Shown here piece by piece: positions 35,230 through 39,426 of a stretch of DNA of 47,907 bases (position 1 is the stretch's first letter; every line of letters starts with the position of its first letter). This stretch comes from a bacterium (lineage in GTDB: Bacteria > Armatimonadota > UBA5829). A model generated the notes under the pieces. The model was given only the letters and a program-made list of their open reading frames with translations. It searched no databases and had not been told where the DNA came from. The stretch covers positions 1-47,907 of the forward strand of contig JAJFTD010000187.1 in NCBI GenBank assembly GCA_021373255.1, read 5' to 3'. The translations under genes and the position numbers were made by a program.

Positions 35230-36402
35230 TTAATCGCAAGATATACCTAGCGACTGAAGCTGTTTTAGTTGATTACGAACCAATGTCATGAACCGCTTAA
35301 TTGTTTCTTGATCGGCTTTCCACAAAGGCGCTTCCATATCTTCATCAGCCCATACAGCAAGGCCTAAATCGTTAGGATCAACTTTCAATAGCTCTTTAAG
35401 ACCAACGTATAATGAATGCACGTCCCGTGTGTAGAGAACATAAATACGCTTCCACTCTTCCTCGTGTGCTTCGTTGATTGGCTTACGTGGATAGATAGGG
35501 CCTTCATTGTTCACGGCTAGTAACCAGTAATGAATCGTGCCATCGGAGTCTTTCCAGTGGAGTTCGACGCGCCGAACGCTAATGGCGCTGTTCCCTACAT
35601 TGCGCACCGAGACTGAAACGCATATCGGATGATGCACCTTCCGCGTCTTCGGATCCACAACTGGGAAATTAATGGAAGTCAGACGACCAATGGTTACATC
35701 AGCCTGCGGCTTTAGCCTCTCTGTCTCTTCTGTGATGACACCTTGACTTTCGGGATATTCTTTTCTGATAACTGCCTCAAGATAACGCCTGAGCGTCTGG
35801 TTTGCCTCTGTGAGCACTTGAACTTGGGCTGACAGCGAAGCTAATTGCTGCTGGCTAGCGCGATCACGAAGCATATCACGGAAGCGTCCGGCCCATTGTT
35901 CACGGAGCCATTCTTCAATATCTGTTGGGTGTTCAAATGTTTGAATTGGGTTGTTCCTGTGCTGTGCTAATATGCGCTCGATGCATCGGAAGACCCGTGT
36001 GTCGTCAACGTGGGCATACTTAATATCTACATTATCTTTGTTTTTCTTGTAAGTCTCATATTCCACGTGCACAGCTCTCTCCACCAGTATATACACGGGA
36101 ATTCCTTTGCTTACAGCTGTGCGATACTCGTGTTCAGTAATACTCTCACTCTCATCTTCGCATAGAGCGTGTGTACTCACTGCACATCCGTATCGGCGGC
36201 CGATCAGCAGCACGAGTATGTCACACTGTTCAACCTCATGGTAGCACGATTCATCTAGCGGCATGGTGTGATCGTAAGATACATCGCCACGTTCAAACAG
36301 GACAGGCTCGTAACCCAATGCAGAGATAAAGGTCTCCAGGCTCGATCTTAGATATTTCAGATCATGGTAGGTTGAACTAACAAATATCCGTGGTCGTGCC
36401 AT
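35230..36402 (-). CDS. DUF4062 domain protein, possible defence effector
   Basis: A 390-residue protein. Residues 1-110 match DUF4062, a TIR/STIR-like domain: RPRIFVSSTYHDLKYLRSSL, ISALGYEPVLFERG, CDILVLLIGRRYG, ESITEHEYRTAVSKGIPVYI. Residues about 160-205 are helical with a short coiled coil (QQLASLSAQVQVLTEANQTL). Residues about 225-330 form a beta-rich domain (CVSVSVRNVGNSAISVRRVE). DUF4062 is often the N-terminal effector or sensor of anti-phage and signalling proteins, usually fused to an NTPase; no NTPase is seen here. AGGGG nine bases upstream fits the ATG. It stands alone next to the 171-bp element. Confidence 0.82.
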   Translation of the reverse strand: MARPRIFVSSTYHDLKYLRSSLETFISALGYEPVLFERGDVSYDHTMPLDESCYHEVEQCDILVLLIGRRYGCAVSTHALCEDESESITEHEYRTAVSKGIPVYILVERAVHVEYETYKKNKDNVDIKYAHVDDTRVFRCIERILAQHRNNPIQTFEHPTDIEEWLREQWAGRFRDMLRDRASQQQLASLSAQVQVLTEANQTLRRYLEAVIRKEYPESQGVITEETERLKPQADVTIGRLTSINFPVVDPKTRKVHHPICVSVSVRNVGNSAISVRRVELHWKDSDGTIHYWLLAVNNEGPIYPRKPINEAHEEEWKRIYVLYTRDVHSLYVGLKELLKVDPNDLGLAVWADEDMEAPLWKADQETIKRFMTLVRNQLKQLQSLGISCD

Positions 36403-36503
36403 TTCGCAAACCCCTATTTCAATGTATTGAGGTTTGATGAGCAGAGGTTAACTTTCGGCAAACATGACACACTCATCAGCACTCAGATCGAAGATACAAT
36501 AGC

Positions 36504-36535
36504 CTCCCCCGCCCGAAAACAACCGGGCAGGGGAG
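36504..36535 (-). terminator. Strong hairpin after the pseudoprotease gene
   Basis: CTCCCCCGCCCG (36504-36515) and CGGGCAGGGGAG (36524-36535) form a 12-bp stem with one mismatch on the plus strand (a wobble on the minus). It ends the htrA operon; the following U-tract is poor. Confidence 0.5.
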
Positions 36536-36544
36536 ACATTAAAA

Positions 36545-37357
36545 CTATTTCGCAGCTTCCGCAGTCTTCTCGGCGGGAGCCTCTGCTGCCTGCGCCGCTG
36601 CCTTGATAATGGTGGAACAAGGCATTACCACATAGATTGAGTCGCTATAGCGTGAAGACATTGAGTCGTCGTCGCGGCTGTCGCTCTTATTCGATTTGTT
36701 GACAACAACCCCAACTGCTTTACCGTCTATAGTGAATGCCGGTGCCCCCACACCCTGGATACCGCATATTACATACATCGTTCTGGGTTTTGTGATTACG
36801 GCCTCTACTCGGTCTATCTCTGCTGCCAGAGCCCGGTTTGCCACAGGTCCGAGGCGGGAGAGGGTGACCAGTTCATCCAGCAGTTGAGGATTACTGGGCT
36901 GAGTGAGATCGACATAAGCAGCCGGTGCCGCCAGCGCCTGTTTTGGCTTGATAAACGCCAGGTCCAGGTCGCGGTCACGCAGAACGATATCCGCGGGAAT
37001 CTCAGTGCCGTCCGCCATCTTCAGCTTCGCATCTATGACATCAATGGTCATGCTGAAGCCCTCCATCTGATCCATTGGGGCGGATGCCGTGGGATCGATC
37101 TCTGAGAGCGATGCTACCGCCAGACCCGACGGGTCGATGATCGTGGCAACCGTTGTCACCTTGTGCTCCTGCTTCTCGGTGTTGCCCTGGTAAGATATCT
37201 TACCTTCAAGTACAAGTGCTACAGTGACAACGGCGTCTTTATGTGCATCGGCTATTTTGCGCCCTTCCTCGGCGGAGTCCGCCCAGCATCCGGTGCTCCA
37301 AAGCAAAGCCGCAGAGCACATCGCGGCGATAACAACTGCTCTTGTCTTTTTGAACAT
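36545..37357 (-). CDS. Catalytically dead HtrA-like secreted protein
   Basis: A 270-residue exported protein (signal MFKKTRAVVIAAMCSAALLW, with a Cys after STG that might be lipidated). The body follows a trypsin-like fold in the HtrA pattern: VTTVATIIDPSGLAVASLSEID aligns with the His-containing strand (in parts), RDRDLDLAFIKP with the Asp region, and GIQGVGAPAFTIDGKAVGVVVN with the Ser region. Where His belongs is Ser-Leu-Ser and where GNSGGP belongs is GVGAPAF, so only the Asp is kept. It has no PDZ domain. GAGGG five bases upstream supports ATG 37357. It starts 14 bases after the active htrA gene, so it is probably a cotranscribed partner: substrate-binding or regulatory pseudoprotease. 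Confidence 0.8.
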   Translation of the reverse strand: MFKKTRAVVIAAMCSAALLWSTGCWADSAEEGRKIADAHKDAVVTVALVLEGKISYQGNTEKQEHKVTTVATIIDPSGLAVASLSEIDPTASAPMDQMEGFSMTIDVIDAKLKMADGTEIPADIVLRDRDLDLAFIKPKQALAAPAAYVDLTQPSNPQLLDELVTLSRLGPVANRALAAEIDRVEAVITKPRTMYVICGIQGVGAPAFTIDGKAVGVVVNKSNKSDSRDDDSMSSRYSDSIYVVMPCSTIIKAAAQAAEAPAEKTAEAAK

Positions 37358-37371
37358 GTATCCCTCTCTCA

Positions 37372-39426
37372 TTATAATGTAGGCCAACTTGGTTCGACTT
37401 CCTGATACATTGTGTGGATTCCTCTATCTACTTTGAAAACCACAACCTTGGGCTTTTGCTTCGCGATAGCTGTCATCGCCTCTTTCAAACCATCGAGCCC
37501 GGCAATTGCTTTGCCGCCTATCTCCGTGATAATGTCTCCAGACCTGAGACCACCCAACGCAGCCCAGCCGCCATCGGCAACCGATTCTATATAGACACCC
37601 TGCGCTTTGTCATCGACATTGCCATCCGCTTTATCTGAGAACGCAATGTCTCTGGCGGTGAACTCAAAGTAGTCGTCGTTGTACTTAGGATAATCACGCG
37701 GCATTTTTGGCGAGGTATTCAGCTCGATTTCCAAGTCCATTGGCTGGCCGTTTCTAATCACTCCCAAAGTAACCTTGCTGCCGGAATCATATTGCCTTAT
37801 AAGGCTTGGCAGGACTTCTTCGTCACCAATCTGGTCAGCCGGGATGTTTTCGCCATCCAGCTTAACAATCAAGTCACCTACCTGCAGCCCCGTCTTCTGA
37901 TCCGAGCCGTCAGCATATACCTGCGTGACCCGGACTCCTGTCTTCCCCGGCACGCCAAGGGCTTGCGCAAGGTCGTCCGTCAGCACCTGCATATCAATAG
38001 GAAGCCAGGTCTTTCTGACCTCCATCCCGGACCGGCTGCTCTCTCTCTTGCCGATCTTGACGACAGTGGCGTAGTTCTTTTTGCCTCGCTCAAAATCGAC
38101 CATTACGGGCACGATTCCGTCTTGACCATCAAGCAGCTTCTTTGTCAGTGTGCTAAGGCTCTTGACGTTGGTGACCGGCTGTCCGCCAACACGCCGTATA
38201 ACATCGCCCTCGCGGATTGCCGGTTTCGCTGACCCTGAAGGCCCGCTCGGAAGCACACCGCTCACAAGCACACCCTCTCGCGAGTCCAACTGAGCTTCCT
38301 TCTGCATCAGATATGTAATGTTCGATCCGCAAATGCCCCACGTTTTCAACTCGTTCTGCCTGTCCTCGGCACTTTGGCGCTCCACAGTGGTCACCTTAAG
38401 GGTGACTACCTTACCAGCTCGAAGCACAGTTGCTTTAACAGTTTTTCCGACCGGTATATCAGCCACAAACTGATTGAACAATGGAACCTCTTCTCTGAAC
38501 CTTGCAGATACGGCGCGCCCATTCAGACCGGTGAGTACATCGCCGGATTTGAACCCGGCTTTCTGCGCAGGGGAGTCGTCCATTACACCACTGACCAGGA
38601 TACCTTTCTTGATCGTGGACGATTGCAACAGTGGCTGCACTTCCAGCCCCATCCAACTCCTGCTTACTTTGCCGTGCTTAATAAGTTGCACAGATACTTC
38701 TTTTACAAGATTGCTGGGTATGGCGCCTGAGAGCCCGAAGCTGATCTCGTTGATTCCCACGATCTCGCCACTGCGGTTTACCAGCGGCCCACCGGAATTC
38801 CCCGGTCTTATTAACGCATCGTGACCGACCCACCGGACAATGGAACCCACATCTTCGCCCGCAAGTTTGAAATCGTCTGCCGACATAAAGCTGGGCATTA
38901 CCATCTCGGTGTTGCTGACTATGCCCATAGTAACGGACTGCGACAGCGCCAGTGGGCATCCCATGGCGAAGACTCTATCCCCGACTTCCAGCTTTGATGA
39001 ATTGCCCCATGGGGCTGTCGGGAATGGCTTGCCGTCCGGTGAAACCAGCTTGATTACGGCAACATCAGACAATGGATCGGTGCCGATCAGCTTCGCATCC
39101 ACCTCGCGCTTATCGGCAAGTGTGCAGACAATACGCTCAGCGTCGGCTGCCACGTGATGATTAGTGACCGCGTAGCCTTCTCGTGATACAATCACGCCGC
39201 TTCCTGCTGATTCTGCTTTAATCTCCCGGCCCTGCTGGTAGTCTGCAGCCACGATATATATTCTGATAAGTGCTGGTCGTACTGCTTCCACGGCTGCGGT
39301 GGTTTCACGTTTTATATCATCGCCAGCGCACATCCCTACGCCTGCGACAGCCATTAGAATTGACACCATTAGTGCAATTGTCAACAAACTGGTGTCGCGA
39401 AATCCGATGCTAAATCTTCTGAACAT
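37372..39426 (-). CDS. HtrA/DegP serine protease with four PDZ domains
   Basis: A 684-residue exported protease. Signal or anchor at 12-34. The protease domain (about 40-250) has an intact triad: TNHHV (H91), DPLSDVAVIKL (D121) and RPGNSGGPLVN (S211). Four PDZ-like domains follow, at about 255-350, 365-455, 470-570 and 585-670 (each with a GDVL/GDVI/GDLI/GDII loop). Most HtrA proteins have one or two PDZ domains. It should degrade or hold misfolded envelope proteins. GGAGGG precedes the ATG. A dead relative lies directly downstream in the same operon. Confidence 0.93.
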   Translation of the reverse strand: MFRRFSIGFRDTSLLTIALMVSILMAVAGVGMCAGDDIKRETTAAVEAVRPALIRIYIVAADYQQGREIKAESAGSGVIVSREGYAVTNHHVAADAERIVCTLADKREVDAKLIGTDPLSDVAVIKLVSPDGKPFPTAPWGNSSKLEVGDRVFAMGCPLALSQSVTMGIVSNTEMVMPSFMSADDFKLAGEDVGSIVRWVGHDALIRPGNSGGPLVNRSGEIVGINEISFGLSGAIPSNLVKEVSVQLIKHGKVSRSWMGLEVQPLLQSSTIKKGILVSGVMDDSPAQKAGFKSGDVLTGLNGRAVSARFREEVPLFNQFVADIPVGKTVKATVLRAGKVVTLKVTTVERQSAEDRQNELKTWGICGSNITYLMQKEAQLDSREGVLVSGVLPSGPSGSAKPAIREGDVIRRVGGQPVTNVKSLSTLTKKLLDGQDGIVPVMVDFERGKKNYATVVKIGKRESSRSGMEVRKTWLPIDMQVLTDDLAQALGVPGKTGVRVTQVYADGSDQKTGLQVGDLIVKLDGENIPADQIGDEEVLPSLIRQYDSGSKVTLGVIRNGQPMDLEIELNTSPKMPRDYPKYNDDYFEFTARDIAFSDKADGNVDDKAQGVYIESVADGGWAALGGLRSGDIITEIGGKAIAGLDGLKEAMTAIAKQKPKVVVFKVDRGIHTMYQEVEPSWPTL

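What the first reader, a model, noticed from the sequence alone, without database searches (positions are those of the whole stretch)
36545..39426. Active four-PDZ HtrA paired with a dead paralogue
The upstream gene has an intact His-Asp-Ser triad and four PDZ domains; the downstream gene, 14 bases away, keeps the fold but lacks His and Ser and has no PDZ. A protease/pseudoprotease operon suggests a hetero-oligomer or a dedicated regulator, which to my knowledge is not a standard HtrA arrangement.
Basis: partly seen in the sequence, partly recalled or inferred. Interest (0 to 1): 0.6.

Follow-up and report, generated by a model that had tools for sequence, protein, structure and literature searches.

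The report
Conserved protease–dead-protease gene pair
Next to a cell-envelope quality-control protease sits a gene for a dead copy of that enzyme; the two have been kept together across many bacterial phyla and have exchanged domains between them, which suggests they work as one two-part machine of a kind known so far mainly as a single fused plant protein.

Summary
Window 37372-39426(-) encodes an HtrA with an intact His-Asp-Ser triad and four PDZ domains. After 14 bases, 36545-37357(-) encodes a 270-aa HtrA-fold protein with a signal-like N-terminus (AlphaFold pLDDT 91; best match DegQ, Z 21.5), without catalytic His or Ser and without PDZ.

The pair is conserved far beyond this organism. 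In 201 genomes of the phylum, all 53 with the four-PDZ HtrA also have the pseudoprotease. A scan of about 85,000 species' genomes with an HtrA segment alone found the pseudoprotease directly downstream in 70 of 74 testable loci, under 16 phylum labels. No other neighbour is shared.

A second arrangement, near-universal in the Hydrogenedentota sample, divides the same parts differently: active protease + PDZ1-2, then pseudoprotease + PDZ3-4. Trees group the two kinds of pseudoprotease, and group PDZ3-4 of both arrangements. So the PDZ tandem moved between partners, which argues for one physical complex.

Closest known: plant Deg7, where the same parts are fused and the degenerate domain mediates trimerisation; MamE/MamO is a second precedent.

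Verdict: a real, apparently undescribed family of split active/dead HtrA pairs. Complex formation is inferred, not shown.

The parts
37372..39426 (-). active four-PDZ HtrA gene (684 aa, ATG start, N-terminal hydrophobic export/anchor helix)
38752..39204 (-). trypsin-like protease domain of HtrA, triad H91-D121-S211 intact
38374..38664 (-). PDZ1 (residues 255-351)
38035..38370 (-). PDZ2 (residues 353-464)
37705..38028 (-). PDZ3 (residues 467-574); its counterpart lies on the pseudoprotease in the type II pair
37381..37698 (-). PDZ4 (residues 577-682); its counterpart lies on the pseudoprotease in the type II pair
37358..37371 (-). 14-base intergenic gap with Shine-Dalgarno-like GAGAGAGGG
   Evidence: sequence
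36545..37357 (-). pseudoprotease gene (270 aa, signal-peptide-like N-terminus, HtrA protease fold, no PDZ)
37103..37105 (-). codon of S85, aligned to the catalytic His (0 of 67 orthologues have His)
36749..36751 (-). codon of V203, aligned to the catalytic Ser (mostly Leu in the family)
36782..36790 (-). KPR motif (residues 190-192), nearly invariant in the family, placed where active HtrA has the regulatory L3-loop region
   Evidence: loop naming from general HtrA knowledge
36502..36537 (-). terminator-like hairpin after the two-gene unit

Best explanation
The two genes encode the two subunits of one envelope protease complex. The first supplies catalysis and four PDZ domains for client or peptide binding. 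The second is a catalytically dead HtrA barrel that acts as a structural and allosteric subunit, most likely nucleating or capping the oligomer and holding the protease in a switchable state, as the degenerate protease domain of plant Deg7 mediates its trimerisation. Shown here: homology, dead active site, near-strict co-occurrence, adjacency, grouping of the dead partners in one tree, and relocation of PDZ3-4 between the polypeptides. Inferred: physical binding, stoichiometry, effect on activity, and the envelope protein quality-control role.
For: All 53 genomes of 201 with the HtrA have the pseudoprotease; 144 have neither; 4 show the pseudoprotease alone at the threshold, and 2 of those carry an HtrA cut by the contig end (Fisher p = 3e-44, not corrected for shared ancestry). 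Pair adjacent in 70 of 74 testable loci found by an HtrA-only scan, under 16 phylum labels; two of the exceptions keep the pseudoprotease elsewhere in the genome. No other conserved neighbour. Both genes retained when unlinked in G003, G004, G019. Type II pair: active protease + PDZ1-2 and pseudoprotease + PDZ3-4. Trees: all pseudoproteases on one side of a branch, SH-aLRT 100; PDZ3-4 of both types together, SH-aLRT 99.7. Deg7 precedent: PMC3473262 and PMC4754418.
Against: No direct evidence of binding: no co-fold and no experiment. The pseudoprotease evolves faster than the HtrA (branch lengths). For MamE/MamO no physical interaction could be detected and activation needed MamO's TauE domain (PMC4794232), so a functional pair need not be a complex. 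The tree of protease domains contains long branches that meet.
Confidence: 0.6

Rival explanations
1. The dead partner is a dedicated regulator or adaptor that binds transiently: an inhibitor, an activator like MamO, or a client-delivery factor using its degenerate cleft, without being a stable subunit.
For: The pseudoprotease evolves faster than HtrA. Tandem duplication to two or three copies, some fused, in Lentisphaerota and elsewhere would fit client diversification. MamO promotes MamE activity without detected binding.
Against: PDZ3-4 are carried by the dead protein in type II and by the active one in type I, which fits a stable shared architecture better than transient regulation; co-occurrence is near absolute.
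Confidence: 0.27
2. The dead protein has taken a separate job (for example ligand or metal binding, chaperoning) and is merely co-expressed with the protease as part of the same envelope stress response.
For: Conserved KPR and G-x-P-x-F motifs that are not catalytic could form a new binding site; the window protein lacks PDZ.
Against: No conserved His or Cys column for metal binding. Co-regulation alone does not explain exclusive retention with one HtrA subfamily when unlinked or the PDZ relocation.
Confidence: 0.1
3. The second gene is a decaying pseudogene of an HtrA duplication.
For: Catalytic residues are lost.
Against: Open, conserved in position and in motifs over many phyla, with a confident fold.
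Confidence: 0.01

Closest known systems
Plant Deg7 (PD-PDZ-PDZ-PDia-PDZ-PDZ)
   Same: [quoted passage not shown] the order in the bacterial type II pair is identical to Deg7's. The degenerate domain is reported to mediate trimerisation (PMC3473262, PMC4754418).
   Different: Deg7 is one polypeptide, chloroplast-stromal. The bacterial pair is two genes with export-like N-termini; in the window type PDZ3-4 sit on the active protein and the dead protein has no PDZ. Specific orthology with the Deg7 degenerate domain was not tested (no sequence to hand).
MamE/MamO of magnetotactic bacteria
   Same: Active HtrA (MamE) with a dead HtrA-like partner (MamO) that promotes its proteolysis (PMC4794232).
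   Different: MamO has a C-terminal TauE transporter domain and a di-His metal site and belongs to the magnetosome genes. None of these is seen here, and the MamO model was not listed for any of 67 members.
DegP/DegQ/HtrA (Do family)
   Same: Upstream protein: HtrA protease plus PDZ; TIGR02037 392 bits.
   Different: Four PDZ domains; below the Do-family cut-off of 416 bits; conserved stretch GEDVGS-x-VRWIGHDA before the catalytic Ser; near-obligate dead partner.
Yeast Nma111/Ynm3 (from memory, not tested)
   Same: Fused tandem HtrA-like repeats, one of them inactive.
   Different: Single eukaryotic chain.

Membership tests
HtrA/Do serine protease (upstream gene) | trypsin-like domain with His-Asp-Ser triad | tested here: met
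   H91, D121, S211 invariant
HtrA/Do serine protease (upstream gene) | C-terminal PDZ domain(s) | tested here: met
   four PDZ stretches
HtrA/Do serine protease (upstream gene) | score above the curated NCBIfam Do-family cut-off (TIGR02037) | tested here: not met
   392.2 vs 416.2 bits; an HtrA, but outside that curated subfamily
HtrA/Do serine protease (upstream gene) | trimer-based oligomer | not testable with these tools
   no multimer prediction or biochemistry
HtrA protease fold (downstream gene) | HtrA-type double beta-barrel | tested here: met
   pLDDT 91.3, Z 21.5 to DegQ
HtrA protease fold (downstream gene) | catalytic triad | tested here: not met
   His 0 of 67, Ser 1 of 67
Deg7-type architecture | one active and one degenerate protease domain plus four PDZ | tested here: met
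   met across the pair of proteins
Deg7-type architecture | all domains in one polypeptide | tested here: not met
   two genes in the loci examined
Deg7-type architecture | degenerate domain orthologous to that of Deg7 | not tested
   no Deg7 sequence at hand
Deg7-type architecture | oligomerisation through the degenerate domain | not testable with these tools
   literature on Deg7 only
MamO | C-terminal TauE transporter domain | tested here: not met
   270-aa protein, only Trypsin_2 found
MamO | di-histidine metal motif | tested here: not met
   no column with His in over a quarter of 67 members
MamO | match to NCBIfam MamO model | tested here: not met
   not among the nine families listed for 67 members at E <= 0.01

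The most novel reading that the evidence does not exclude
A bacterial HtrA class spread over some 15 phyla is an obligate hetero-oligomer of an active and a dead subunit. It arose once by tandem duplication, and PDZ3-4 later moved between the subunits. Fused eukaryotic Deg7/Nma111-type proteins may descend from the split bacterial type II pair.
Probability: 0.45. Interest if true: 0.75.

Novelty: new variant of a known kind. Interest (0 to 1): 0.62.

Why it matters
Bacterial HtrA proteases are usually treated as homo-oligomers. A conserved dead partner in many phyla, without a Pfam or NCBIfam family of its own, would add a trans-acting subunit to their regulation and could explain how Deg7-like proteins arose. 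It makes the role of degenerate HtrA domains testable in a simple two-gene system with two natural ways of dividing the same domains, and gives a likely role to genes now annotated, at best, as trypsin-like.

Tried and rejected
Pseudogene: rejected because of conservation over phyla. MamO membership: rejected (no TauE, no conserved His, MamO model not listed). Larger conserved operon: clustering of neighbours in 80 loci found only the pair; other clusters were antisense ORFs or scattered genes. A genome scan with the broad pseudoprotease alignment failed, because it has no conserved 7-10-column stretch, so an HtrA sub-region was used; this also made the test of adjacency independent. Natural HtrA-pseudoprotease fusion in bacteria: none seen among open frames; the long frames in L117 and L184 are overlapping ORFs. 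A KPR(pseudoprotease)-GED(HtrA) contact was considered and not adopted: type II active partners lack GED while type II pseudoproteases keep PR. The original Deg7 oligomerisation paper is not held; a plant-Deg inventory and a review were used. No paper describing this bacterial pair was found, but subscription journals are not covered.

Full report
What is there. The window lies in a genome of the Armatimonadota: contigs of same-genus and same-phylum relatives coincide with records titled Armatimonadetes/Armatimonadota, e.g. G002:C156 (8867 bases) with L073 and G013:C303 (19060 bases) with L076. On the minus strand, 37372-39426 encodes a 684-aa HtrA with one Trypsin_2 domain and four PDZ domains, preceded by a good ribosome-binding site. 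Fourteen bases after its stop, a 270-aa protein with a signal-like N-terminus begins at ATG 37357 and ends at 36545, followed by a terminator-like hairpin at 36537-36502.

Is the second protein an HtrA barrel? Yes. The window protein alone scores slightly below the Pfam cut-off (23.0 vs 27.6 bits), but all 30 orthologues scanned match Trypsin_2, the family profile finds HtrA structures in the PDB (best E 5e-10), profile-profile comparison with the partner HtrA gives 96.7% probability, and the predicted structure (pLDDT 91.3, pTM 0.86) matches DegQ, DegS and DegP at Z 20-21.5. The catalytic Asp is mostly kept; the His position is mostly Ser, Thr or Ala and never His; the Ser position is mostly Leu. 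One of 67 has a Ser at that column, but no member has a His at the other. Invariant or nearly invariant positions are instead Gly78, Asp128/130/132, Arg168, Pro-Arg 191-192 (usually Lys before), Gly204-x-Pro-x-Phe208, Gly212 and Gly216. NCBIfam has no family for it.

Is the pair conserved? In 61 relatives the pseudoprotease is found in 32 genomes, and the long HtrA in the same 32, counting one fragment at a contig end. In 201 genomes of the phylum at 85% completeness or more, 53 have the four-PDZ HtrA and all 53 have the pseudoprotease; 144 have neither. Of four apparent pseudoprotease-only genomes, two carry HtrA truncated by the contig end, one has the pseudoprotease next to a contig end, and one is unresolved. 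Fisher p = 2.7e-44 before correction for shared ancestry; related genomes are not independent, but genera that have both and genera that have neither occur side by side in several families (f1, f2, f3, f5, f7, f9, f16, f27). The order is HtrA then pseudoprotease, adjacent in 48 of the 53 (my count from the coordinates). In G003, G004, G019, G099 and G216 the two are not adjacent, yet both are present.

Beyond the phylum. A single scan of about 85,000 species' genomes with a conserved HtrA sub-region, which contains nothing of the pseudoprotease, gave 267 confirmed relatives, of which the best 80 were kept. The pseudoprotease lies directly downstream in 70; six are cut by a contig end. Of four without it, two have it elsewhere in the genome (L140, L149), one is an interrupted HtrA near a contig end (L081), and one is a short HtrA that is not of the four-PDZ kind (L106). 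The carriers are labelled Armatimonadota, Verrucomicrobiota, Hydrogenedentota, Caldifarciminota (WOR-3), Stahliibacteriota, Planctomycetota, Myxococcota, Acidobacteriota, Lentisphaerota, Nitrospirota, Pseudomonadota, Bacillota, Omnitrophota, Hinthialibacterota, Fibrobacterota and Kiritimatiellota. They are metagenome bins, so single labels may be wrong. Neighbour clustering shows that only these two genes are shared.

A second arrangement. Searching the exceptional genomes uncovered another tandem pair: an active protease with two PDZ domains followed, usually with overlapping reading frames, by a pseudoprotease with two PDZ domains. In a sample of 60 genomes of the phylum of G069 (a Hydrogenedentota bin), the second gene occurs in 55 and the first in 56, side by side in nearly all. 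In 25 pairs examined, the active partner keeps His, Asp and Ser in all 25; the pseudoprotease has lost Ser in all 25 (Val, Ile or Leu) but keeps His in 20 and Asp in 25, so it is less degenerate than the window type. Domain profiles place its PDZ tandem with PDZ3-4 of the window-type HtrA: for the last PDZ, the PDZ4 profile scores 67-76 bits against 17-29 for PDZ2; for the first, PDZ3 71-77 bits against 58-67 for PDZ1. A tree of tandems puts PDZ3-4 of both types on one side of a branch with SH-aLRT 99.7. A tree of protease domains puts all pseudoproteases together (100) and the two active types together (99), with the caution that long branches meet.

Reading. One duplication produced an active and a dead HtrA-like gene. 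In one line the PDZ3-4 tandem sits on the dead copy, in the other on the active copy. The direction is not resolved, though the type II order and its less degenerate active site suggest that it is nearer the ancestral form. That the same parts are divided differently between the two chains while staying together is the strongest sequence argument for one complex. It remains an inference.

Comparison with what is known. Plant Deg7 has the arrangement PD-PDZ-PDZ-PDia-PDZ-PDZ in one chain; its inactive protease domain is reported to mediate trimerisation (PMC3473262; PMC4754418, both citing Schuhmann et al. 2011). The bacterial type II pair is this architecture cut in two, and the window type is a re-partitioned form. 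MamE/MamO is a second, functionally tested active/dead pair, where MamO promotes MamE's activity without detected binding; dead copies arose three times in magnetotactic bacteria (PMC4794232). Thus the principle is known, while this family, its breadth and the two partitionings appear not to be described in the papers I could search.

Limits. Orthology to Deg7 was not tested. Envelope location rests on N-terminal hydrophobic segments and on general knowledge of HtrA proteins.

Noticed in passing
L165, L166, L167, L168, L171, L177-L196: Type II pair (Hydrogenedentota and relatives): active HtrA with PDZ1-2, then pseudo-HtrA with PDZ3-4, usually with overlapping reading frames; Ser lost in 25 of 25, His kept in 20 of 25.
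   Followed up: yes
L113, L133, L142, L150 (Lentisphaerota): Three pseudoprotease units behind one HtrA, in three of the four loci with two of them fused in one frame.
   Followed up: partly
L047, L078, L064 (Armatimonadota): Tandem duplicated pseudoprotease genes after one HtrA.
   Followed up: partly
G003, G004, G019 (L040, L041, L059, L162, L163, L164): HtrA and pseudoprotease unlinked but both retained; G003 and G004 belong to the window's own genus, where other members keep them adjacent.
   Followed up: partly
window 35230-36402 (-): Stand-alone DUF4062 protein (PF13271, E 2e-21) downstream of the pair, beyond the terminator-like hairpin; role unknown.
   Followed up: no
G047:C1 (L070): Single contig of 3,437,861 bases carrying the pair; from memory the size resembles the cultured Chthonomonas calidirosea, which would be a host for experiments; identity not verified.
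   Followed up: no
G064:C325:15830-17358: Two tandem open frames of about 400 aa with weak pseudoprotease matches in a Planctomycetota genome; possibly a third arrangement.
   Followed up: no
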